Assembly (NCBI GenBank): GCA_029432795.1
Contig: JARNMJ010000037.1
Coordinates: forward strand, 1 to 42,519
DNA: 42,519 nucleotides
From: Pontiellaceae bacterium B12219
GTDB taxonomy: Bacteria; Verrucomicrobiota; Kiritimatiellia; Kiritimatiellales; Pontiellaceae
Direction of reading: 5' to 3'
The position numbers were made by a program, and so were the translations under genes. Numbering within the stretch: the first letter of the stretch is position 1; each line of letters starts with the position of its first letter. Under the pieces are notes generated by a model that was given only the letters and a program-made list of their open reading frames with translations, did not search any database and was not told the DNA's origin. Shown here in pieces: positions 26,494 to 36,673 of this stretch.

Positions 26494-28488
26494 ATGATTT
26501 TCCGGATGCTCATGATTTTGTTGCTGATCGGCACCTTCTGTCAGGCACAGACGTATGAGCTATATTCGGAGGCACTGAAAACAGCAACAGATCAAAATAG
26601 CACACATCGGTTGAAAGCGCAGATCGCGGATGCCGCCATCCAGCGTTTGGAAACGGAAGAGCTTTCAAAAACAGCTGTCAAAAAACTTCGGGAAGAAATA
26701 CAGGCCCACTGTGCGGATGTGCAATTGGGTGCGATGGATCTGTGGTATGGCAATTCCGTGGTCACGTGGGCGCGTTTAATGGTCCTCGATGGAAAATGGA
26801 AAGAGGCGCGGTCGATGCTGTGGGATCAGGCGGAGGTGCTGCAGAATATCGAAAAGAATCTGACGGCGAATGATATTCCCGTTTCATCAATCAGCCCGGT
26901 GGCGGGATGCCGGTATCTGCTCGGTGAAACCTATCGGATGGAATACGAGGAGTTCCAAACATTGGAACCGGCCGCCGAAGCGCTTAGGCACTTTTACAAC
27001 GTCTACATTAAATATGGCGACAGCCCATGGGGCGAGCGGGCCGGAGAACAGGCCGAAGCGGCGCAGGCTTTTCTGGAAAGCAACGGCAAGCAGGTTCGTA
27101 TCGATTTAGGCCCGCACCGCGATGCCTTTATCGCTAATAAATTTCAGTTAGGCGCCCGGCTGATGGCCGACGAGCGCTATGCCGATGCTATTGAGCCGAT
27201 TGAAACCGCAATCAATTTTTTTCCAGAGACGGGGAGGTCAGTGGAGGCCCTGCGTAATCTGGCGCTTTGTCAGCTGAATCTCGGGCACGATGAACAGGTT
27301 ACTCTGATTTCAGAATATCTATGCGAGCGATTTCAGTCCGACACCAATGCACCGCTGGCCCTGCTGGGCATCGGGCGGAATTACATTGAAGGAGGCAATG
27401 AATCCAATGGTGAGCAAATCTTTGATCTCTATTTAGCCGCCTTTTCTGACGATTCGCACCGCGCTGATATCATTTCCTATTTTGCGTGGAAGGCCTACAA
27501 AGCCGAGCGGTGGGAGGAAGCCGTAGGCCGTTTCCAAGCCTTGGAAACTCTGCTTCGTGAAAAAGAACAGCACGGATTGGAGCTGGAAAAAGCGGTTTAT
27601 ATTCAAGCCACGCATCCGGCCGACCCCGTAAAGCTGGATGCTTTTATGGACGAGTTTCCGGAGTCGGAATTTCTGGCATCGGCGTTGAATAAAAAGGCGC
27701 AGTCCCTGTTGGTGGCGGGCGATTTTGATGCGGCCTTCCAAACCTTGGAAACCTTGCAGGAACAATTCCCCGAAGCGGCGGCCACAAGATCCGCGCTCTC
27801 CGGTTTGATTGTGGCGGCGGTGGATGCAGAGCGATTCGATGTTGCCGAGCAGGTGCTCGACCGGATGCTCGAAGATCAGGAATCCTATGGATACGACGTT
27901 TACCTTTCAACCGGCGATGGGTTGCTCGCGTCCGGCCGTTTTGCTTTAGCCGAAAAAGCATTCAGCGCGGTTCCGATGACGGCCAAGCGAGCGTTTGCGG
28001 AGCGGGCGCTGTTCGGAAGGGGCGCCTGTCAATTCGGGCGTGAACTGTTTGATGTCAGTTTCCAAACGCTGGAAAACCTGCTGAGCCAATTTCCAACCAC
28101 TGGAACGTTTTATGATGCACGATTAATGCAGGCCCGCAGTCTGGTTCAGCTGGGCCGAATCGATGAAGCGGCTGCGGCCTACGCGGAAGTGGTTGCCGCA
28201 AAGCAGGATTACGCGATTACGTTTGAAATGGCCGCAGTGCTTGCGGAACCGGAAGAACAGCTGGCGGCGTATCAGCGCATCGCATTGCTGGCCGACCCGA
28301 CTGTGAAAGAAAACCGGGAGCTGATCGCCGACAGTATTTTAACGAGTCTACCGCTCTGCATGGAGCTGCAGAAATATGAGCTGGTCCTGAGTTCCTGCGA
28401 TCAATTTGAAGATCTCTTTCCGGAACACGAACAACTTCCAACCCTTGGAACATTCCGAAAGGAGGCCGAACGTGCGTTGGTTCAGTAG
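26494..28488 (+). CDS. secreted tetratricopeptide-repeat protein
   Basis: The 664-residue product has a signal peptide (MIFRMLMILLLIGTFCQAQ) followed by many TPR-like helical pairs, such as RHFYNVYIKYGDSPWGERAGEQAEAA, RYADAIEPIETAINFFPETG and RLMQARSLVQLGRIDEAAAAYAEV-like units. BamD/YbgF-style repeats of this kind organise envelope complexes in the periplasm. It heads an operon with a second TPR protein, ExbB and two ExbD, so it probably works with the proton-driven motor. Six exact palindromic repeats lie inside it, giving the recurring peptide FQTLE or its frame-shifted readings. Confidence 0.82.
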   Translation: MIFRMLMILLLIGTFCQAQTYELYSEALKTATDQNSTHRLKAQIADAAIQRLETEELSKTAVKKLREEIQAHCADVQLGAMDLWYGNSVVTWARLMVLDGKWKEARSMLWDQAEVLQNIEKNLTANDIPVSSISPVAGCRYLLGETYRMEYEEFQTLEPAAEALRHFYNVYIKYGDSPWGERAGEQAEAAQAFLESNGKQVRIDLGPHRDAFIANKFQLGARLMADERYADAIEPIETAINFFPETGRSVEALRNLALCQLNLGHDEQVTLISEYLCERFQSDTNAPLALLGIGRNYIEGGNESNGEQIFDLYLAAFSDDSHRADIISYFAWKAYKAERWEEAVGRFQALETLLREKEQHGLELEKAVYIQATHPADPVKLDAFMDEFPESEFLASALNKKAQSLLVAGDFDAAFQTLETLQEQFPEAAATRSALSGLIVAAVDAERFDVAEQVLDRMLEDQESYGYDVYLSTGDGLLASGRFALAEKAFSAVPMTAKRAFAERALFGRGACQFGRELFDVSFQTLENLLSQFPTTGTFYDARLMQARSLVQLGRIDEAAAAYAEVVAAKQDYAITFEMAAVLAEPEEQLAAYQRIALLADPTVKENRELIADSILTSLPLCMELQKYELVLSSCDQFEDLFPEHEQLPTLGTFRKEAERALVQ

Positions 28489-28861
28489 TTTTCTAATTCT
28501 ATTGGCGGTTGCTTCGGTCGATGCCGCCTATGTGGTGAATAACGCGGGGCGTCAGATTAACGGTACGATGATTTCTGCGAGTGAAGACGGGGCCGTCACG
28601 TTAACGACCTCCTCCGGCCAAACCATGACCTTTCAAAAAGGGCAGTATCGTTCTGCCGCCGCCGATCGCCCAGCTGCGTTGAATAAAGCCGAGCAGTTAT
28701 TAGAGAGCGGACAAGGGCAGCAGGCAGTTCCGCTCTTAAAGCAGGTGAAGGCAGAGTGCCGGTTTCTGGCGTGGGACCAGACGGCGATTCAGTTACTGGC
28801 GGACTACTATTTATCATCCGGCCAATATGGCGAAGCCGTCAGTGAGTTCCAGACCTTGGAA
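26953..28861. repeat. cluster of seven TTCCA-N5-TGGAA palindromes
   Basis: Exact copies at 26953, 27532, 27736, 28060, 28091 and 28436 in the first TPR gene and 28847 in the second (15 bases each). This is the densest stretch in the window. Five read F-Q-x-L-E; 28091 (P-T-T-G) and 28436 (P-T-L-G) use another frame. Confidence 0.92.
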
Positions 28862-29188
28862 GATCAGAGCGATCCTGAAACGCAACGCAAAGTGCGCGAG
28901 GCGATGCTGAAGAGCGGGGCGTCCGATTCCGTATTGCTGGTTTTGAATCAAGACATTGCAACCGGCTCCCGGGAAGCGGCGGCGCAGGCCTATTTGTTGC
29001 GCGGTGACCTGAACGCTTCAAACGGCGATCTTGAAGGCGCGCGCCGTGATTGGCTCAAAGTCGCCACATTCTTTAAAGCACAGAAAGAACTCGCTCTGGA
29101 GGCTGAGCAAAAACTGGATAACCACAAAGAAGCACATGGCGCCGCCGAAAAGAAGGCGGCTGCGCAAAGACCAGATCCTCCGAATTAA
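28472..29188 (+). CDS. secreted TPR-like protein of the Ton/Tol operon
   Basis: The 238-residue product has a signal peptide (RWFSSFLILLAVASVDA), a short beta region (YVVNNAGRQINGTMISASED) like SLA1/SH3-type domains, and a TPR-like part (AIQLLADYYLSSGQYGEAVSEFQTLED). GTG 28472 follows AAAGGAGG and overlaps the upstream gene by 17 bases, so translation is coupled. The last ~22 residues (HKEAHGAAEKKAAAQRPDPPN) are encoded by an inverted-repeat element that ends beyond the stop codon, so the original C-terminus has been replaced. Confidence 0.8.
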   Translation: MRWFSSFLILLAVASVDAAYVVNNAGRQINGTMISASEDGAVTLTTSSGQTMTFQKGQYRSAAADRPAALNKAEQLLESGQGQQAVPLLKQVKAECRFLAWDQTAIQLLADYYLSSGQYGEAVSEFQTLEDQSDPETQRKVREAMLKSGASDSVLLVLNQDIATGSREAAAQAYLLRGDLNASNGDLEGARRDWLKVATFFKAQKELALEAEQKLDNHKEAHGAAEKKAAAQRPDPPN

Positions 29189-29225
29189 TTTTGTCTTCGT
29201 ATTTCTTGCGCCTCTTCGTGGCCAT
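29120..29225 (-). mobile_element. cargo-less GxxExxY-type inverted-repeat element
   Basis: The reverse complement of this ~105-base segment matches both ends of the full element at 31411-31930: first CCACGAAGAGGCGCAAGAA..CGAAGACAAAA, then GTCTTTGCGCAGCCGCCTTC..GGCGGCGCCATGTGC..TTTGTGG. The gene between the ends is absent, leaving only a CGGAGGAT remnant like the full element's ribosome-binding site. It is in the opposite orientation to the full copy. A possible ATA duplication flanks it. Confidence 0.8.
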
Positions 29226-29249
29226 AAAAATTTAGAAGGAGAAGTAGGT

Positions 29250-30008
29250 ATGAAACGACTAATGATGGGTTTATTGATGTTGCTTTTAGTGGTGCCTGTA
29301 TTGGCGCAGGAAGCGGAGATTGTGAAGAGCGAGTCGGTGCAGGCGGCGGAAGCGGCGCCGGAGGAGGTTTCCGGTTTCTTGGATGTGGTCAAGGGTGGCG
29401 GGGCGTTCGGTATGGCGCTCTGGCTCGGGCTCGCCGGACTCTCGCTGGCGGCGGGCGCGCTGATTGTGGATTCGGTGCTGAATATCCGGACCTCGAAAAT
29501 TATTCCGAAGACGCTGGTGTCGCTGGTTCGCGAAGCCATTGAAGACGGCAGCGTGAAAAAGGCGGCGCAGCGCTGCAAGGATGTGCCGGGGCCCTATTCC
29601 AATATTCTGCTGGCGGGTTTTGAAAATGTGGAGGACGGCTTTGATTCAGCGCAGGAAGCCATCGGCATTGCGGCCGACATGGAGAGCGAAAAAATGCTGC
29701 AACGCGTGAACTACCTCAACGTGGTTGGAAACCTCGCGCCGATGCTCGGCCTGCTCGGAACGGTGCAGGGAATGATTCTGGCTTTCGCCACATTGGGCAC
29801 CACTTCCGGTGCGGCGAAGAACGCGCTGCTTGCCATCAATATTTCGCAGGCACTTTATACGACGGCCGCCGGGCTGGTGATCGCTGTCCCGGCGATCGGC
29901 TCCTACTTCTTTTTCCGCAACCGTGCTGCCAAGGTGATCCTCACCATGGAAGGTCTGACGATGGAAGTGATGAAGGGGCTGAAGAAAAAAGGGGAGTCGA
30001 ACGTCTGA
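29250..30008 (+). CDS. exbB: ExbB/TolQ-type proton channel protein
   Basis: The 252-residue protein has an N-terminal hydrophobic signal-like segment (MKRLMMGLLMLLLVVPVLAQ) and three membrane segments typical of MotA/TolQ/ExbB: AFGMALWLGLAGLSLAAGALIVDSVL, LNVVGNLAPMLGLLGTVQGMILAF and ALYTTAAGLVIAVPAIGSYFFF. It forms the inner-membrane proton channel that, with ExbD, energises outer-membrane processes. The cleavable-looking N-terminus is common in planctomycete and verrucomicrobial ExbB. The stop codon TGA lies at the first bases of an inverted-repeat element. Confidence 0.93.
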   Translation: MKRLMMGLLMLLLVVPVLAQEAEIVKSESVQAAEAAPEEVSGFLDVVKGGGAFGMALWLGLAGLSLAAGALIVDSVLNIRTSKIIPKTLVSLVREAIEDGSVKKAAQRCKDVPGPYSNILLAGFENVEDGFDSAQEAIGIAADMESEKMLQRVNYLNVVGNLAPMLGLLGTVQGMILAFATLGTTSGAAKNALLAINISQALYTTAAGLVIAVPAIGSYFFFRNRAAKVILTMEGLTMEVMKGLKKKGESNV

Positions 30009-30070
30009 AGGTCGAAGGTCTGAAAGTCGGGAATAGCTGACTTACGACTTTTGACTTTACGACTTTTGAC
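30003..30070. mobile_element. cargo-less four-helix-bundle-type element, copy 1
   Basis: The left arm (30003-30028, GTCTGAAGGTCGAAGG..GAAAGTC) and right arm (30039-30070, GACTTACGACTTTTGAC..GACTTTTGAC) are inverted relatives with a short GGGAATAGCT-type centre. The same arm types flank the four-helix-bundle gene at 30518-30964. The exbB stop codon is inside the left arm. Confidence 0.75.
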
Positions 30071-30079
30071 TGATTTATC

Positions 30080-30517
30080 ATGAAACGAAATTTCCAGAAA
30101 GGCGGTAGCGGCGGGATTAATATGACGCCGATGATCGACGTTGTGTTTCAGATGATCATTTTCTTTGTCTGTACCGCACAGCTGGAGCGGGAACAGTTTT
30201 CGGAATGGATTACATTGCCGGATTCGCCGAATGCCCCGCAGATGGCGCAGGAAAAAGACCCGTGCACGATCACCATCGAAGTGGATGAAAAAGGGAAGGT
30301 TTTCATCGGCCGCACGCCGCTGAGTATTTCCAAACTTCGGAAGGTCCTCACGAAGACCGTCGCCGATTACGGAGTATACGGACCATCGATTCCCATACAG
30401 ATTCGAGCAGATTCTTCAGTCCCTCACTCATTTGTGCGGCAGACTATGGATATCTGTACGGAATCGGGATTGTATAAAATTGCGTTTATTGCGGTGAAGG
30501 ATTCGGTGAGTGACTGA
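30080..30517 (+). CDS. exbD: ExbD/TolR-type protein 1
   Basis: The 145-residue bitopic protein has INMTPMIDVVFQMIIFFVCTAQ with the proton-relay aspartate at residue 20, then a periplasmic domain ending AFIAVKD. It is the partner of ExbB in the proton-driven motor. It is separated from exbB by one inverted-repeat element and from the second exbD by another that carries a gene. Confidence 0.94.
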   Translation: MKRNFQKGGSGGINMTPMIDVVFQMIIFFVCTAQLEREQFSEWITLPDSPNAPQMAQEKDPCTITIEVDEKGKVFIGRTPLSISKLRKVLTKTVADYGVYGPSIPIQIRADSSVPHSFVRQTMDICTESGLYKIAFIAVKDSVSD

Positions 30518-30964
30518 GGTGGTCGAAGGTCGGAATGTCCAAGGTCGAAAGTCAATAGCTTGTAGCTTAAGGAGGAACACGTGAATCGAGTGGAGAGTTT
30601 TGAAGATCTGCGAATTTGGAAAGAGGCCAGAGAACTGGTGAAACATATCTATTCTGATCTTAAGGCCAATCGGGATTATGGATTCTGCGATCAAATACAG
30701 CGGGCAGGGGTGTCTATCATGAATAACATTACAGAAGGTTTTGAACGACATTCCGATACCGAGTTTGCCCGGTTTTTGAATATTGCCAAAGGTTCGGCAG
30801 GAGAGGTTCGTAGCATGTATTACGCAGCAGAGGACTTAAGCTATGTTTCAGGACACGTGGCTACCGAGAGGCGCAAATTTTTGAAAAGCATTTCAAAAGG
30901 GATTGGCTCCCTCGAAGGGTATCTTCGCAAGTGACCTTCGACCTTCGACTTTAAGACCTTTGAC
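30518..30964 (+). mobile_element. four-helix-bundle gene cassette with inverted ends (full copy)
   Basis: The left end (30522-30554, GGTCGAAGGTC..AAGGTCGAAAGTC) and right end (30932-30964, GACCTTCGACC..GACCTTTGACG) are inverted repeats matching at about 26 of 33 positions. They enclose the four-helix-bundle gene with its own ribosome-binding site. The element fills the whole gap between the two exbD genes. Confidence 0.75.
30581..30934 (+). CDS. four-helix-bundle (S23/IVS-type) protein
   Basis: The 117-residue protein has the family pattern: FEDLRIWKEARELVKHIY, FCDQIQRAGVSIMNNITEGFER, FARFLNIAKGSAGEVRSMYYAAEDLSYV. This is the small four-helix bundle encoded in 23S rRNA intervening sequences of Leptospira and Coxiella and scattered through many genomes; its function is unknown. 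GTG 30581 follows AAGGAGG. Its position between two exbD genes, inside inverted repeats, suggests it is cargo rather than a motor component. Confidence 0.93.
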   Translation: MNRVESFEDLRIWKEARELVKHIYSDLKANRDYGFCDQIQRAGVSIMNNITEGFERHSDTEFARFLNIAKGSAGEVRSMYYAAEDLSYVSGHVATERRKFLKSISKGIGSLEGYLRK

Positions 30965-30985
30965 GACGAAATCGAATGAATTGAT

Positions 30986-31405
30986 ATGAGAAGGAATAAA
31001 AACAGACGCTTTGCCAATACCAACGACGAAATCGAGTTGTCGATGACGCCGATGATTGATGTGGTGTTCCAGCTGCTGATCTATTTTCTGGTGACGTTCA
31101 GCACGGCGGATGTGCTGGCGTTGTTGGATATTTCGCGTCCGGCTCCGGATGCGGCGCAGTCGCAGCAGACGCCGCCGGCGGACATGATTCGGGTGGCGGT
31201 GTTGAAAGAGGGATTTGCGATTAACGGGCGAGCGGTTTCAGTTGAAGAGCTGGATGCGCTGTTGAAGAAGCTGGCGCAGATCAGCACCAAGCAGACGGTG
31301 ATGGTGAACTGCGATGATCAATCGCTGCACGGAAAACTCATTCAGGCCCTGGATATGTGCGCCTCGCACGGATTGACGCAGATTGCGGTGATGTCGGGGA
31401 AATAG
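30986..31405 (+). CDS. exbD: ExbD/TolR-type protein 2
   Basis: The 139-residue bitopic protein has LSMTPMIDVVFQLLIYFLVTF with the key aspartate at residue 25, then a periplasmic domain (FAINGRAVSVEELDALLKKL) ending HGLTQIAVMSGK. Two different ExbD proteins per ExbB are usual in this kind of operon. The stop is six bases before the GxxExxY element. Confidence 0.94.
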   Translation: MRRNKNRRFANTNDEIELSMTPMIDVVFQLLIYFLVTFSTADVLALLDISRPAPDAAQSQQTPPADMIRVAVLKEGFAINGRAVSVEELDALLKKLAQISTKQTVMVNCDDQSLHGKLIQALDMCASHGLTQIAVMSGK

Positions 31406-31410
31406 GGGAT

Positions 31411-31930
31411 CGCCACGAAGAGGCACAAGAAGCACGAAGACAAAACCGGAGAGGGATATGGAATGGAAAACTATTAATGAATTGTGTGATGCGGTTCGTA
31501 AGACGAGTTTAGACATACATCAGTATCATCGATCCGGCCATTTGGAGAAGATATACGAAAATGCACTGGCTCACAGGCTGAGAAAGTTAGGGTTGGATGT
31601 GAAACAACAATATCAACTAACTGTTTATGATGAGGACGGAACTGAGTTGGGAGAATATTTTGCAGATCTGCTTATTGAAGGCCAGCTGATTATAGAATTG
31701 AAAGCATGTAAGTCGGTCTCTGATGAACATGTTGCTCAAATCCTGGGTTACCTTCGTTCATCCGGCATAGAGCACGGTTTGTTAATCAATTTCGGTGCTC
31801 CCAAACTATTCATCAAAAAATACATCCTCAATAATAACCCTCGATTAGGTAGTAGTTCCCTCAAGAGTCTACTTCTGAGTCTTTGTGCAGCCGCCTTCTT
31901 TTCGGCGGCGCCATGTGCCTCTTTGTGGCT
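31411..31930 (+). mobile_element. GxxExxY gene cassette with inverted ends (full copy)
   Basis: It begins CGCCACGAAGAGGCACAAG..CGAAGACAAAAC and ends CTTTGTGCAGCCGCCTTC..GCGGCGCCATGTGCC..TTTGTGGCT. The outermost bases are inverted (CCACGAAGAGGCAC / GTGCCTCTTTGTGG). The ~50-base right end is nearly identical, in reverse complement, to 29122-29170, and the left end to 29191-29225. The cargo gene sits between. Confidence 0.8.
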
Positions 31931-31949
31931 AATTATCCACCAGCAATGA
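31458..31949 (+). CDS. GxxExxY protein (PD-(D/E)xK superfamily)
   Basis: The 163-residue protein has the name-giving motif G27-H-L-E30-K-I-Y33, then a PD-(D/E)xK-like core: F-A-D70-LLIEGQLIIE80-L-K82 and HVAQILGYLRSSGIEHGLLINFG. The fold is nuclease-like, but no activity is established. ATG 31458 follows GGAGAGGG. The last ~25 residues (SLCAAAFFSAAPCASLWLIIHQQ) are encoded by the terminal repeat of the element and are hydrophobic, so they are probably not part of the ancestral protein. Its stop overlaps the next start (ATGA). Confidence 0.92.
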   Translation: MEWKTINELCDAVRKTSLDIHQYHRSGHLEKIYENALAHRLRKLGLDVKQQYQLTVYDEDGTELGEYFADLLIEGQLIIELKACKSVSDEHVAQILGYLRSSGIEHGLLINFGAPKLFIKKYILNNNPRLGSSSLKSLLLSLCAAAFFSAAPCASLWLIIHQQ

Positions 31950-33442
31950 AATCCAGTAGTAACAATTTAATCAGCAGAGTCAGTGGGCCGGCGGTTTCGG
32001 TCGTTGTTCATGTTGGAATTGTCATCCTTTTGCTGAAGGTGCTGGTGTTCCGGACGCCGGAAAAAGAGACGGCGATTGATGTGCAGGTGGTGGAAGAGCA
32101 GATTCGGGAGCTCGATAAAGTAGAAGAGCAGGAACCGCAACAGGAGCAAACGGCTGAAGAAGCGTTGGAAGCGCCGAATGAGTTAGCCGATGAATTGCCG
32201 GCAGATAATTTACTACCCGATTCCATGTTGGATTCAGAACTGGATCTGAGCGGGCTGGATGCCGTGGCGAATATTGAAAGTCCGTTGGTGATGAAAGGGC
32301 TGATGGTCGGCCGGTCAGAGAGCGGACGGAAAAAATTATTGCGCGAGTTCGGCGGGCGCTATGGCGGGCAGGCGGAAAAGGCCGTATTGAAAGGGCTCGA
32401 TTGGCTGCAATCGGTTCAGGATGAAAACGGTTCGTGGGGTGTGGGTAAGAGCAGGAGTATGACGGCGAGGCAGGAGCGGGCGCGGCTGACAGGGCTGGCC
32501 TTGCTTTGTTATCTGGCGCATGGGGAAACCTCGCAGTCGGAGGTCTATGGCGAAACCGTCCAGCGGGCGATTCAATATTTGCTGGATGAGCAGAATGACA
32601 AAACAGGAAGCTTTGTTCCGTTTTCAAAAACAGTCGGCTCGCACGACGATATTGGCGTTTATGGCCACGCGATTGCGACCTATGCGTTGTGCGAAGCGTA
32701 TGGGATGACGCGTATGCCTTTGCTGAAGGAGCCCGTAGAAAAGGCTGTGCAGGTTATTATTGACGGGCAGCAGAAATCCGGCGGTTGGGATCACCGCTAT
32801 CAGCATGAAAAGTGGAGTGACCTTTCGGTGGGGGGTTGGCAGGTACAGGCGTTGCGGGCGGCACAGGCGGCTGAGGTTCAGGTGGATGGAATTTTGCAGG
32901 CCTTGGAAGATTCGGTTTCGTTTGTGCAGGGCATGTATGCGGGGGAAGGGAAGTTTTATTATCGTCTCGGAAACAAAACGCCGAACGGGGACCTGGATTA
33001 TATGACGGGTGTGGCGGTGCTGTGTATGCAGCTGGCGGGCAGCAATCAGGAGGATGAAGTGAAATCGGGATTGGATTATTTAAAGGATGTTGAATGCTCG
33101 GATTGGGACGAGGGCTGGGAAAAGACTGGTAAGAACAAGAGCTTCAATATTGCCTATGAGTGGTATTACAACACGCAGGCGATTTTTCAGAAGGGCGGTT
33201 CAAAATGGTCGAGCTGGAATAAAAAATTTGCACCGATGCTGATCGAAGCGCAGGACTCTTCCGGAGCCTGGAAACCGCCGAGTGAAATGGATGAAGCCGT
33301 TTCCAAAGACATTATTTACACGACCAGCTTCTGCACGCTTTCCCTGCAGGTCTACTATCGTATTCTGCCTTCATTCAAAAAGGCCGATCGTAATGATCGG
33401 CCTTTCGAATTCGATAACGATGTGAAGATCGTTGTCTATTAG
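31946..33442 (+). CDS. TonB-like N-terminus with alpha-toroid (prenyltransferase/squalene-oxidase-like) domain
   Basis: The 498-residue protein has one membrane segment (AVSVVVHVGIVILLLKVLVF, about 15-35) and an acidic Glu/Gln-rich stretch (ELDKVEEQEPQQEQTAEEAL) like TonB. From about residue 140 it has alpha-alpha toroid repeats with QDENGSWG, TGSFVP, QKSGGWDHRY, EGKFYYR and QDSSGAW. No terpene-cyclase DxDD motif is seen, so it is likely a binding module. It would transmit ExbB/ExbD energy to an envelope partner. ATG 31946 overlaps the GxxExxY stop and lacks a Shine-Dalgarno sequence; the upstream bases belong to the inserted element. Confidence 0.82.
   Translation: MKSSSNNLISRVSGPAVSVVVHVGIVILLLKVLVFRTPEKETAIDVQVVEEQIRELDKVEEQEPQQEQTAEEALEAPNELADELPADNLLPDSMLDSELDLSGLDAVANIESPLVMKGLMVGRSESGRKKLLREFGGRYGGQAEKAVLKGLDWLQSVQDENGSWGVGKSRSMTARQERARLTGLALLCYLAHGETSQSEVYGETVQRAIQYLLDEQNDKTGSFVPFSKTVGSHDDIGVYGHAIATYALCEAYGMTRMPLLKEPVEKAVQVIIDGQQKSGGWDHRYQHEKWSDLSVGGWQVQALRAAQAAEVQVDGILQALEDSVSFVQGMYAGEGKFYYRLGNKTPNGDLDYMTGVAVLCMQLAGSNQEDEVKSGLDYLKDVECSDWDEGWEKTGKNKSFNIAYEWYYNTQAIFQKGGSKWSSWNKKFAPMLIEAQDSSGAWKPPSEMDEAVSKDIIYTTSFCTLSLQVYYRILPSFKKADRNDRPFEFDNDVKIVVY
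33379..33405 (+). terminator. terminator-like hairpin inside the 3' end of the toroid gene
   Basis: AAAGGCCGATC-GTAAT-GATCGGCCTTT is a perfect 11-base stem located 37 bases before the stop codon. It encodes K-A-D-R-N-D-R-P-F. Only three T residues follow, so termination would be weak. Confidence 0.5.
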
Positions 33443-33469
33443 TTCCTTCCGTTGTCACTTGGGTGTCAT

Positions 33470-33543
33470 AAAGTCAAAGGTCTGAAGGTCGAAAGTCCCG
33501 TACGTCCGGACAGGCAGCCCTTAGACTTTTGACGTTAAGACTG
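33470..33543. mobile_element. cargo-less four-helix-bundle-type element, copy 2
   Basis: The left arm (33471-33497, AAGTCAAAGGTCTGAAGGTC.. to AAAGTC) and right arm (33523-33543, AGACTTTTGACGTTAAGACTG) are inverted relatives of the arms at 30003-30070 and 30518-30964. The centre is 25 bases. It lies between the convergent toroid and permease genes. Confidence 0.7.
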
Positions 33544-33554
33544 TTGCTGCCGCC

Positions 33555-34844
33555 TCAGATGCTGATGATCAGGTTGATGGCGGAAAGCAGACCGACGACC
33601 CACATGACCGGTGAGATCTTTTTGAAATCGCCCGAGCATACTGCAATCAGAATGTAGGAAAGGAAGCCAACGGTCAGGCCGGTGGCAATGCTGAAAGTCA
33701 GCGGCATCAGGATCATGGTAAGGAAGGCCGGAACGCCGATTTTAAGATCCTTAAAGTCAATTTCCTTGATGTTGCGGAACATGTAGACACCCACAATGAT
33801 GAGGGCCGGGGCAGTGGCGAAAGCCGGAACCACGCCGATCATCGGTGCCAGGAAAAGGCCGAGCAGGAACAGGATGCCGGTAACCACTGAGGCGAGGCCG
33901 GTGCGGGCGCCGTCGCCAATGCCGGAGGCGGACTCGATGTAGGTGGTTGTGGTGCTGGTGCCCAGCAGTGAGCCGGCAATGGTGGCGACCGCATCGGCTT
34001 CGAGCACTTTATCGATTTTCTTGATCGTTCCGTCGGGCTTCACATAGCCGGCTTCGTAGGAACAGGCGACGATGGTGCCGATGGAGTCGAAGAGGTCGAC
34101 AAACATGAAGGAGAAGATGGCTCCGACGAGTCCCCACTGCAAGGCGGCCATGATATCCAGTTTGAAGGCAATCGGTGCGATGCTCGGCGGAGCCGATACC
34201 CAGGTTTCAGGCATGCTGACTTCACCGAAAATGACGCCCAGAACGGTGGCGATCAGAATACCGATGAGAATGGAGCCTTTAATTTTTCGTGCTTCCAGAA
34301 CCGTAATGATGATGAGGGATGCCAGACCGATCAGTACGGGCGTGGTTAATTTACCGATGGATACCAGTGTGGCGGGATTATCGACAATGAGCCCGAGGTT
34401 TTTCATTCCGATGAACGTAATGAACAATCCGATCCCGGCAGCGGTGGCAATTCGCAAGCCGACCGGTATGGCGGTGACCACCTTTTCCCGAATCCCGATC
34501 ACCGTCAGAATCAGAAAGGCGACGCCCGAGACGAAGACCACGCCGAGCGCCGTCTGCCAGCTCAGGCCCTGACCCATGACAAGGGTGTAGGTGAAAAAGG
34601 CATTCAGTCCCATACCCGGTGCCATGGCAAAAGGCACGTTGGCCCAGAGGCCGACGAGCAGCGTGCCGAGGGCTGCCGCCAGGCAGGTGACGGCAATCAG
34701 CGCGGGCTTATCCATGCCGGCTTCGCTCAGAATCATGGGGTTCACGAAAATGATATAGGCCATCGTCAGGAAGGTGGTGATCCCGCCGATGATTTCGGTT
34801 TTAACATCGGTTCCGTGTTCTTTGAGTTTAAAAAAGCCGAGCAT
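33555..34844 (-). CDS. NCS2-family purine permease (AzgA-like)
   Basis: The 429-residue protein has about twelve hydrophobic segments and AzgA-type blocks: TEIIGGITTFLTMAYIIFVNP, FAMAPGMGLNAFF, FMFVDLFDSIGTIVACS and LLGTSTTTTYIESASGIGDGARTGLASV. This branch takes up hypoxanthine, guanine or adenine with protons. The next gene upstream on the same strand is a Tsx-like nucleoside channel, so the pair probably forms a purine-uptake route across both membranes. No purine riboswitch is visible. Confidence 0.93.
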   Translation of the reverse strand: MLGFFKLKEHGTDVKTEIIGGITTFLTMAYIIFVNPMILSEAGMDKPALIAVTCLAAALGTLLVGLWANVPFAMAPGMGLNAFFTYTLVMGQGLSWQTALGVVFVSGVAFLILTVIGIREKVVTAIPVGLRIATAAGIGLFITFIGMKNLGLIVDNPATLVSIGKLTTPVLIGLASLIIITVLEARKIKGSILIGILIATVLGVIFGEVSMPETWVSAPPSIAPIAFKLDIMAALQWGLVGAIFSFMFVDLFDSIGTIVACSYEAGYVKPDGTIKKIDKVLEADAVATIAGSLLGTSTTTTYIESASGIGDGARTGLASVVTGILFLLGLFLAPMIGVVPAFATAPALIIVGVYMFRNIKEIDFKDLKIGVPAFLTMILMPLTFSIATGLTVGFLSYILIAVCSGDFKKISPVMWVVGLLSAINLIISI

Positions 34845-34872
34845 GGTTTTCTCCCGTTAGCGTTTGGCTGGA

Positions 34873-35652
34873 TTAGAAATGATACTGAACGATGCCGCTG
34901 ATGGCATTCTGATCGGTGTCTAAACCGAAGTTACCGTCTTTAATACCGTATTTATTTTTCCAGTAATCATATTCCACACCGGCGAGCAGCTTGCCGCCTT
35001 CCATATTGCAGAGCGCGCCGATATCAAATTTGAGCTGCGGGCAGATGTGCAGGTTCTTTTCATAACTGCCATCGCTGTTCATTACCCAGTCGATGAAGCC
35101 ATCGAAGATGAAAGTGGACTTCGCAACGGGAGTGGAATATTTCCATACGGCCGTCAACTGAAGGGATTCTCCGTTGTCGCCTTTAAGGTCGAAGCGCTGA
35201 TAAAGATTGAGTTGTACAAAGTCAAAGGCGGGCACATCGAGATCAACACCGGCACCGACAAGAAGGTTATGACCGTAATCATCCCCATTAACTCCGTGAC
35301 CATATTCATAGCAGGTAGCGATCAGCCAATCTTTTACAAAGGCTACGGAGAGGTCTTTACCCGTCATCTTATTGAAGCTGAAGCGTGGTGCAATTTCTCC
35401 ATAGTATGATGTTTTATTCCCAAAACCGTTTTCGTCTCCATTGAAGTAGACTAGGTCATTGAACCAGAAAAAATCACCCCATTTCCACCCGTTAGCATAT
35501 TCAATGGTTAGTGTCTCCTGGGTTTCGGGATCGACTTCAAAGCCCGTCCCGTAAAGCCCGGTTAGGCTGGTGTCCTGCCATTGAATGAAATCACCGGCAA
35601 AAGAGAGTGTGGTTGCTGAGCATAATAATACAGAAAGTAGTGTCCGATTCAT
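34873..35652 (-). CDS. Tsx-like nucleoside-specific outer-membrane channel
   Basis: The 259-residue product has a signal peptide (MNRTLLSVLLCSATTLSFA) then FIQWQDTSLTGLYGTGFEVDPETQETLTIEY and alternating beta-strand pattern with GDFFWFNDLVYF, ending in aromatic YHF as outer-membrane barrels do. The N-terminal WQ-D-x-S and the whole layout fit the Tsx/OmpK family. It would admit nucleosides to the periplasm, feeding the neighbouring permease. The start at 35652 follows GGGGAA at a usable spacing; 35655 is an alternative. Confidence 0.82.
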   Translation of the reverse strand: MNRTLLSVLLCSATTLSFAGDFIQWQDTSLTGLYGTGFEVDPETQETLTIEYANGWKWGDFFWFNDLVYFNGDENGFGNKTSYYGEIAPRFSFNKMTGKDLSVAFVKDWLIATCYEYGHGVNGDDYGHNLLVGAGVDLDVPAFDFVQLNLYQRFDLKGDNGESLQLTAVWKYSTPVAKSTFIFDGFIDWVMNSDGSYEKNLHICPQLKFDIGALCNMEGGKLLAGVEYDYWKNKYGIKDGNFGLDTDQNAISGIVQYHF

Positions 35653-35854
35653 CATTTCCCCTGAGTTGTACCGCACCTAAATTGTACGGTTTAATTAAAA
35701 CTAATTTTCATAGGCGGGGCACTATGCGTATATTTTTTAGATGGCCAAAGCCTAATTTAAAAAAACCTAATTCAGGAAACTGCGATAATATTAACCGTAA
35801 TTTAATATCTGGCATATGTGACTTTTACGGAAGGGAGCAGGGAAAAGGCTTATT

Positions 35855-36673
35855 TTAGAATCGGCGGGTAAGACCGATGATCATGGTGTCGTCCGGTTGC
35901 AGATTAAGTTCCATATGCAGATCGTCGGGGGAGTCGACGCCGAGAAAAGCATCATTAATGAACGCCCCGAAAAAGTTTCCGAGGGCGATGCCCGCCAGCA
36001 CATCCGATGGATAATGCCGCCCTCCCTCAATGCGTGCCCAGCCGGTGGCATAGGGCAGTATATAGAGTCCGGTTTTAAGGGTGGTTTTACTCCAGCCGGG
36101 AATCAGAAGCGAATCTGTATTCTTAATTGCCAGCATGCTGTTGACCGCTGCTGAAGATGAGTGGCCGGATGGAAAACTTTCATTGTCGTCCATGTTCGGA
36201 CGGGTGCGGTTGCTTGCGGATTTTAATAATTCCGTGGTTCCTAATGTGAGCAGGGGAGCCGTTAACTGAATGCCCGTTCCCCTTAGTTTTGCGGAGGTCC
36301 ACTCTTCGGAATCAGAACCACTGGGTGTTGCCAGCGCGGTAATACCGAACATCACCATTGAAAAGCCATCCAGTGCGTTGCTGGCATCGGTGGCTTTCCG
36401 GTGGGTGCTGAAAACGGGGGTGTTTTCATAGGCCCAGTCCGAGATGGATTGATCCGCACCGTCAATCTGCAACAGCAGTGCCGTCCCAACGGGAGCCCAG
36501 ACGTTCGGGGAGGATGCCGCGTTCCAGGCCGCATGCCGGACGCGGTCCCAACCGGGAGCGAGGGTGGCATGCTGTCCCCACCGCTGCCCGTTCGGCAAGG
36601 TGCCGCACCCGGAGAGCATGCAGAGGCCGATGAGTGACAAGCCCTGCAGAGCTACAGAGAAAATTATCGCCAT
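35855..36673 (-). CDS. PAP2-superfamily lipoprotein phosphatase
   Basis: The 272-residue product has a lipoprotein signal (LSLIGLCMLSGC, lipobox cysteine at 23) and the three PAP2 motifs: KSASNRTRP, SFPSGHSSSAA and RIEGGRHYPSDVLAG. These supply the catalytic histidines and phosphate-binding arginines. It should dephosphorylate a lipid or small phosphate in the periplasm. The C-terminus (MIIGLTRRF) looks like a membrane-associated beta end. It starts 17 bases after the large fusion gene. A TTG at 36703 would overlap that gene and is less likely. Confidence 0.9.
   Translation of the reverse strand: MAIIFSVALQGLSLIGLCMLSGCGTLPNGQRWGQHATLAPGWDRVRHAAWNAASSPNVWAPVGTALLLQIDGADQSISDWAYENTPVFSTHRKATDASNALDGFSMVMFGITALATPSGSDSEEWTSAKLRGTGIQLTAPLLTLGTTELLKSASNRTRPNMDDNESFPSGHSSSAAVNSMLAIKNTDSLLIPGWSKTTLKTGLYILPYATGWARIEGGRHYPSDVLAGIALGNFFGAFINDAFLGVDSPDDLHMELNLQPDDTMIIGLTRRF

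What the first reader, a model, noticed from the sequence alone, without database searches (positions are those of the whole stretch)
30003..33543. Four-helix-bundle gene sits in its own inverted-repeat cassette, with two cargo-less copies in the same operon
The gene at 30581 is bounded by 33-base inverted arms of the GGTCGAAGGTC/GACCTTCGACC type. The same arms without a gene occur at 30003-30070 and 33470-33543. Four-helix-bundle proteins are known from 23S rRNA intervening sequences, which also have complementary ends that pair and are cut out by RNase III. The arms here would pair in the polycistronic mRNA, so these could be intervening-sequence-like elements acting in an mRNA.
Basis: partly seen in the sequence, partly recalled or inferred. 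Interest (0 to 1): 0.8.

Follow-up and report, generated by a model that had tools for sequence, protein, structure and literature searches.

The report
Mobile gene cassette with seven-base arms
Across bacteria, genes for a small four-helix-bundle protein of unknown function sit inside mobile DNA cassettes whose two ends are mirror-image arrays of a seven-base repeat, with gene-less copies scattered nearby, which links long-known orphan seven-base repeats to a protein and to a previously unrecognised kind of small mobile element.

Summary
The gene at 30581 (PF05635/TIGR02436, the '23S rRNA intervening-sequence protein' family) lies between imperfect inverted arms, and gene-less hairpins of the same type lie at 30003-30070 and 33470-33543.
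The pattern is general. In 107 such genes from relatives, 61% have inverted arms (controls 1.9%). In 71 from many phyla, 73% do (controls 2.1%). The arms are 7-nt tandem repeats whose sequence differs between elements; GxxExxY arms have a 9-10-nt period.
The cassettes are mobile DNA. Empty sites exist in genus relatives and on Nostocales plasmids whose flanks are up to 98-99% identical, with 5-bp target duplications (GTAAT, TTCTA) at two sites. Similar cassettes (75% or more protein identity) at unrelated sites usually share the heptad; different proteins have different heptads.
IVS membership is not supported: this genome's 23S rRNA has no insert, no widely sampled locus is in 23S rRNA, and the arms show no sense-strand RNA-pairing signature.
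Best reading: a small insertion element whose protein probably recognises its heptad arms, as RAYT does REP, with hairpins as gene-less derivatives. Mobilising enzyme and RNA processing are unknown.

The parts
30519..30559 (.). left arm of the four-helix-bundle cassette, heptad repeats of GTCGAAG type
   Evidence: I3/I1; score 37 vs shuffle max 24; period 7 in this class
30581..30934 (+). four-helix-bundle gene (PF05635 / TIGR02436), 117 aa, GTG start
   Evidence: (PF05635 E 2.7e-30); solved relative 2GSC, 5 chains
30927..30967 (.). right arm of the same cassette; the stop codon of the gene lies at its start
30003..30070 (.). gene-less GTCGAAG hairpin between ExbB and ExbD1; holds the ExbB stop codon
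   Evidence: folding z -6.5; the same slot holds the same hairpin type in G001, G016 and G023, another type in G005 and none in G024
33470..33543 (.). gene-less GTCGAAG hairpin after the last gene of the operon, between convergent genes
   Evidence: folding z -4.7
31409..31445 (.). left arm of the GxxExxY cassette (CACGAAG type, 9-10-nt period)
   Evidence: I2, I14; class period
31458..31949 (+). GxxExxY protein gene (PF13366 PDDEXK_3 / TIGR04256), 163 aa; its stop codon overlaps the start of the next gene (ATGA)
   Evidence: E 3.5e-29
31879..31931 (.). right arm of the GxxExxY cassette, with an internal GCCGCC...GGCGGC hairpin
   Evidence: I1
29119..29225 (.). gene-less, reversed copy of the GxxExxY cassette ends, before ExbB
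   Evidence: I1 94% over 53 nt, I2 89% over 37 nt; folding z -2.6
29250..30008 (+). host operon: MotA/TolQ/ExbB proton channel gene
30080..30517 (+). host operon: ExbD/TolR gene 1, upstream neighbour of the cassette
30986..31405 (+). host operon: ExbD/TolR gene 2, downstream neighbour; overlaps ExbD1 by ATGA in G016, where the cassette is absent
31946..33442 (+). host operon: prenyltransferase/squalene-cyclase-like repeat protein
   Evidence: (PF13243)

Best explanation
The gene and its two arms form one small mobile DNA element of about 450 bp. Its ends are inverted arrays of a degenerate 7-nt repeat whose sequence is particular to each element type. SHOWN: the gene+arm architecture is a rule across bacteria; cassettes insert at gene junctions and leave related empty sites; two insertions carry 5-bp target duplications; similar genes at unrelated sites usually keep the same heptad; gene-less copies with the same arms are scattered in the same genomes. 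INFERRED: the four-helix-bundle protein (a ring of five in solved relatives) binds the heptads of its own ends, and of the gene-less copies, and directs their movement or maintenance together with a host or trans-acting DNA-cutting enzyme; the hairpins at 30003 and 33470 are non-autonomous derivatives of the cassette. The GxxExxY cassette is a parallel element with 9-10-nt repeats and a nuclease-fold protein. The cassette has no obvious promoter of its own and probably rides on read-through from the upstream gene; RNA hairpins in the operon mRNA are a possible by-product. Split of confidence: mobile cassette about 0.9; protein specifically recognises the arms about 0.55.
For: Arms: 61% of 107 genes in order-level relatives vs 1.9% of 377 control ORFs; 73% of 71 genes across phyla vs 2.1% of 469 controls, p 8e-28. 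Period 7: lag-7 matches 1.6-1.7x (relatives) and 2.3-2.4x (wide set) over expectation, lag 14 alike, no other lag; 7-nt arrays before 54 of 71 genes, 0-3 for any other unit of 5-11 nt. Empty sites: ExbD1|ExbD2 junction empty in G016, G024, G005, filled in G000, G001, G021, G023. On plasmids, Trichormus/Scytonema filled vs Nostoc linckia/Tolypothrix empty at 98-99% flank identity with GTAAT duplicated, and three Nostoc plasmids filled vs three empty with TTCTA duplicated. Unit mobility: pairs at non-homologous sites with at least 75% protein identity share the heptad in 6 of 8; below 40% identity in 0.9%. Gene-less copies: 83 places on 42 plasmid records for one type (L355 and L356 read); AGGCTTT repeats concentrate in genomes with an AGGC-type gene, p 0.001 after removing own arms. 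GxxExxY: 73% of 41 have arms, period 9-10.
Against: No transposase, integrase or known catalytic residues in the four-helix-bundle protein, and no experiment. The heptad-protein coupling could be plain linkage in a cassette moved by an enzyme acting in trans. TSDs are readable at only two of five plasmid sites and not in the window's own genus, where flanks have diverged. At the window's own slot the genes of G001, G023 and G021 may be vertically inherited orthologues. About 27-39% of the genes have no detectable arms, perhaps decayed. G021 has an orthologous gene at the same site with a different heptad, which needs concerted change or replacement. The fetched-gene lists behind the genome-level heptad test are incomplete, and GTCGAAG repeats also occur in genomes where no such gene was fetched.
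Confidence: 0.7

Rival explanations
1. Intervening-sequence-like RNA element: the arms pair in the polycistronic mRNA, RNase III excises or cuts the insert, and the protein acts on that RNA.
For: Same protein family as 23S rRNA IVS ORFs (PMC4990558). The gene is in the sense direction behind an upstream gene in 102 of 107 and 61 of 70 cases, against 83 of 115 in the background. Gene-less hairpins in the window fold very stably as RNA. GxxExxY arms lean to sense-strand pairing, 17 of 26, p 0.02.
Against: No 23S insert in this genome; none of 80 wide loci lies beside 23S rRNA. Arms of four-helix-bundle cassettes show G.U 146 vs A.C 138 in relatives, and the opposite of the expectation in the wide set. 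Sense vs antisense folding is 28:28 in relatives, and the wide set favours the antisense strand. Own-genome gene-less hairpins: 4 sense, 5 antisense.
Confidence: 0.15
2. Passive cargo: the arms belong to MITE-like elements moved by an unrelated transposase in trans, and the four-helix-bundle or GxxExxY gene is only a passenger.
For: 5-bp target duplications resemble those of DDE transposases (general knowledge); many gene-less copies exist; the element encodes no known recombinase.
Against: The same two protein families are found with two repeat classes (7-nt and 9-10-nt) in unrelated element types, and the heptad changes with the protein subtype; one trans enzyme would be expected to fix one end sequence.
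Confidence: 0.25
3. REPtron/REPIN system: the repeats are REP-type palindromes moved by a RAYT (Y1, HUH) transposase of the genome.
For: Same overall plan: gene between inverted repeats and dispersed gene-less pairs; Y1_Tnp genes are present in 39 of 43 relatives.
Against: The Y1 genes have their own, different ends (GGGGTCAGTCC, CCCCGGAGGGG) with no 7-nt period, and the cassettes carry no Y1 gene.
Confidence: 0.04
4. Ordinary operon hairpins: mRNA-stability or attenuation structures that happen to flank a small gene.
For: They lie at gene junctions in an operon and fold well.
Against: Presence and absence between close relatives with otherwise intact junctions, target duplications, the same units at unrelated loci, no T-run at the ends.
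Confidence: 0.03

Closest known systems
23S rRNA intervening sequences (IVS) with S23p/IVP ORF, e.g. Coxiella burnetii (PMC4990558)
   Same: same protein family (PF05635); complementary ends; forms without the ORF exist; patchy distribution
   Different: not in rRNA; heptad arrays as ends; many dispersed copies per genome; DNA-level empty sites with target duplications; no sense-strand pairing signature
REPIN / RAYT (REPtron) systems (PMC3116915, PMC8266576)
   Same: one gene between inverted repeats, many gene-less inverted pairs, repeat type coupled to protein subtype
   Different: protein is a four-helix bundle, not a Y1 HUH nuclease; ends are 7-nt tandem arrays; 5-bp duplications at two sites
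Orphan heptanucleotide repeats: cyanobacterial heptanucleotide repeats (cited in PMC4692102), GGGAATC repeats of Xanthomonas with 70-75 inverted pairs per genome (PMC4692102), TAACTGA repeats (PMC4679880)
   Same: same unit length, intergenic, often inverted pairs; the arms of a Xanthomonas arboricola cassette (L317) are GGGAATC heptads, and Nostoc cassettes carry heptads too
   Different: described without a gene, a mobile unit or insertion sites; PMC4692102 found no general association with mobile elements
MITEs
   Same: short gene-less inverted-repeat elements with short target duplications
   Different: no parent transposase known; degenerate tandem arms; the parent form carries a PF05635 or GxxExxY gene
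Avd of diversity-generating retroelements
   Same: homologous fold, five-subunit ring (PMC10053308; 2GSC and 2RLD have 5 chains each)
   Different: no reverse transcriptase, template or variable repeat was seen around the window cassette

Membership tests
PF05635 / TIGR02436 four-helix-bundle protein | profile match above the curated cut-off | tested here: met
   PF05635 105.1 bits, cut-off 33.8; TIGR02436 93.9 bits, cut-off 24
23S rRNA intervening sequence | insertion inside an rRNA gene | tested here: not met
   insert lies between two ExbD genes; own 23S has no insert
23S rRNA intervening sequence | complementary ends | tested here: met
23S rRNA intervening sequence | excision by RNase III from the transcript | not testable with these tools
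   no RNA data; indirect test for RNA-pairing selection negative
REPIN/RAYT system | Y1 (HUH) transposase gene with REP ends | tested here: not met
   cassettes encode PF05635 or PF13366; Y1 genes of the order have other ends
REPIN/RAYT system | dispersed gene-less inverted pairs of the same repeat | tested here: met
Inverted-repeat mobile element (generic) | precise empty sites in relatives | tested here: met
Inverted-repeat mobile element (generic) | target-site duplication | tested here: met
   GTAAT and TTCTA at two plasmid sites; not readable at three others nor in the window
Inverted-repeat mobile element (generic) | encoded or identified transposase | tested here: not met
   only PF05635 or PF13366 between the arms
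Diversity-generating retroelement accessory protein | adjacent reverse transcriptase with template and variable repeat | tested here: not met
   none among the genes of the operon; rest of the genome not searched for RT

The most novel reading that the evidence does not exclude
A bacteria-wide class of mobile elements without a transposase, in which a ring-forming four-helix-bundle protein reads a 7-nt repeat, one repeat per subunit, at its own inverted ends and at many gene-less copies, with the repeat and protein co-evolving; 23S rRNA intervening sequences would then be members of this class that landed in rRNA, and the orphan heptanucleotide repeats of cyanobacteria and Xanthomonas would be its gene-less copies.
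Probability: 0.4. Interest if true: 0.92.

Novelty: categorically new. Interest (0 to 1): 0.82.

Why it matters
PF05635 proteins are widespread, have solved structures and no known function; heptanucleotide repeats have been described as orphans for decades. Joining the two gives a function to test (binding of a heptad by the cognate ring), a source for the repeats, and a class of mobile elements that annotation does not see. It also offers a DNA-level origin for rRNA intervening sequences. The literature check was limited to open-access papers: four hold the family's names and no search returned a paper on cassettes or arms. The gene+repeat link therefore appears undescribed there, but a description elsewhere cannot be excluded.

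Tried and rejected
Searches assumed that genome-search loci are turned to the match strand; they are not, so gene-end distances in those two calls are unreliable for minus-strand matches; strand-aware repeats are. One search built its first profile from seeds that included three wrongly oriented ones; hits were still found on both strands, and the independent wide set, with a profile from correctly oriented proteins, gives the same result. RNA-pairing selection was tested three ways (G.U vs A.C counts, per-element sign, sense vs antisense folding) and not found for the four-helix-bundle arms. RAYT as mobiliser: rejected from ends and period. Rfam: no hit in window 28000-36000 and nothing above gathering score in the gene-less Nostoc elements. 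Phage collection: no match. Empty sites for two gene-less plasmid elements were sought and not found. Whole-genome hairpin scan of 440 kb was too strict for degenerate arms and finds mixed hairpin types.
Full report
OBSERVATION. The sequence at 29.0-33.6 kb is an operon: a 260-aa gene, MotA/ExbB, ExbD1, ExbD2 and a squalene-cyclase-like repeat protein. Between ExbD1 and ExbD2 lies a 117-aa PF05635 gene flanked by arms 30519-30559 and 30927-30967, 41 nt and 78% complementary. The inverted score is 37, against a maximum of 24 in 200 shuffles. Gene-less hairpins of the same repeat lie at 30003-30070 and 33470-33543; as RNA they fold with z -6.5 and -4.7. The second of these lies after the last gene, between convergent genes. 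A second cassette was overlooked: a GxxExxY (PF13366) gene at 31458-31949 with arms 31409-31445 and 31879-31931, of which 29119-29225 is a reversed gene-less copy. So one operon holds two gene-bearing cassettes of two repeat classes and gene-less copies of both.

GENERALITY. The own genome has nine TIGR02436 and five TIGR04256 genes. In order-level relatives 107 unique TIGR02436 genes with flanks were examined: 61% have inverted arms (score 26 or more) against 1.9% of 377 control ORFs in the same loci, p 4e-31. The arms differ between elements (GTCGAAG, TTGGTGC, AGGCTTT, GTTGTTG, GAATGAA and others) but share a 7-nt period: lag-7 identity 1.56 and 1.71 times expectation, lag 14 1.44 and 1.60, no other lag above 1.11. 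An independent set from a GTDB scan over many phyla gave 71 usable genes: 73% with arms against 2.1% of 469 controls, p 8e-28, lag 7 at 2.31 and 2.38, lag 14 at 2.31 and 2.42. Arrays of 7-nt units precede 54 of 71 genes; any other unit of 5-11 nt precedes 0-3; most arms have 4-5 units. The 5' arm has more G than C in 63 of 65 and 47 of 52 cases. GxxExxY genes have arms in 73% of 41 cases, with a 9-10-nt period (CACGAATCA, CACAGAGAA, CGCAAAGAC, AACAGGATT). Y1/RAYT genes of the same genomes have other ends and no 7-nt period.

MOBILITY. In the window's genus the same operon is found with the four-helix-bundle slot filled (G000, G001, G023, G021) or empty (G016, where ExbD1 and ExbD2 overlap by ATGA; G024; G005), and with the GxxExxY slot filled (G000, G016, G023) or without the gene (G001, G021, G024, G005). 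The ExbB-ExbD1 junction holds a GTCGAAG hairpin in four genomes, another hairpin type in G005 and none in G024. On plasmids, PF05635 genes are mostly cyanobacterial. For the Trichormus variabilis and Scytonema cassettes, Nostoc linckia and Tolypothrix plasmids have the empty site at 98-99% flank identity; GTAAT is on both sides of the insert. For a cassette of three Nostoc plasmids, three other Nostoc plasmids are empty and TTCTA flanks the insert. In one strain (Nostoc sp. ATCC 53789) two homologous plasmids each carry a different cassette at neighbouring junctions, each empty in the other. At three further sites the insertion is clear but the duplication is not readable. For pairs of cassettes at non-homologous sites, 6 of 8 with at least 75% protein identity share the arm motif, against 0.9% below 40% identity. 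Gene-less elements with the same arms are common: 83 places on 42 plasmid records for the AGTCAGG type. AGGCTTT repeats concentrate in genomes with an AGGC-type gene in two families, p 0.001 after removing the genes' own arms, though the list of genes fetched per genome is incomplete.

RNA OR DNA. The gene usually follows an upstream gene in the same direction (102 of 107; 61 of 70; background 83 of 115), so it is probably transcribed by read-through. If pairing in that RNA were selected, G.U should be preferred to A.C in the arms and the sense strand should fold better. Neither holds: 146 vs 138 and 37 vs 80; folding 28:28 in relatives and in favour of the antisense strand in the wide set. 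GxxExxY arms lean weakly the other way (17 of 26, p 0.02), so an RNA role for that class is not excluded. The genome's 23S rRNA has no insert, and none of the 80 wide loci matches 23S rRNA. The IVS reading is therefore not supported as membership; RNA cutting of the hairpins remains untested.

MECHANISM. The matching of two arms 400 bp apart, across many different heptads that follow the protein subtype, is best explained if something specific to each element reads the heptad. The only such product is the protein. Solved relatives 2GSC and 2RLD have five chains each, PMC4990558 describes the former as a pentameric ring, and PMC10053308 notes homology to Avd. A ring that binds one heptad per subunit is inference. 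The DNA-cutting step is unknown: the protein has no known catalytic motif. The window hairpins are read as gene-less derivatives.

RELATION TO WHAT IS KNOWN. Heptameric GGGAATC repeats of Xanthomonas, with 70-75 inverted pairs per genome, were described without association to mobile elements (PMC4692102); the arms of the Xanthomonas arboricola cassette (L317) are GGGAATC heptads. TAACTGA heptamers of Beggiatoaceae and cyanobacteria (PMC4679880) may belong here, which was not tested. Four open-access papers hold the family names searched; none of the literature searches returned a description of such cassettes. The overall plan resembles REPIN/RAYT, but the defining Y1 enzyme is absent.

LIMITS. 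No experiment; TSDs at two sites only; the window's own insertion cannot be resolved to the base; orthologous copies within the genus may be vertically inherited. The closest named relative in the order is annotated Pontiellaceae (100% match to a protein of G030), so the genome is probably Kiritimatiellota.

Noticed in passing
window, e.g. 17645, 17898, 18094, 22761, 28060, 28436, 28847: The palindrome TTCCAN5TGGAA occurs about 24 times in 42.5 kb (Markov expectation 0.5), within and between genes, with the spacer nearly always 5 nt.
   Followed up: partly
L355:391-583, L356:397-585 and 83 places on 42 Nostocales plasmids: Gene-less AGTCAGG-type elements share a core of about 100 nt with hairpins whose stems change together between copies (CAATCAGTCG..CGACTGATTG vs CAATCAGTGG..CCACTGATTG); no Rfam family at gathering score.
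   Followed up: partly
L332 (Anabaena sp. 90 plasmid pANA02): A four-helix-bundle cassette sits between cas6 and cas4 of a type I-D CRISPR locus.
   Followed up: no
L094 from about 6300 (G016): A reading frame that looks like a RAYT gene follows the squalene-cyclase-like gene, where the window has the gene-less hairpin 33470-33543 (resemblance by eye only).
   Followed up: no
L102:3970-4310 (G029): Truncated GxxExxY gene remnant between ExbD1 and ExbD2, with repeat remains: a decaying cassette.
   Followed up: no
wide set: Arms of four-helix-bundle cassettes pair slightly better on the antisense strand (29 vs 14 elements, p 0.006); unexplained.
   Followed up: partly
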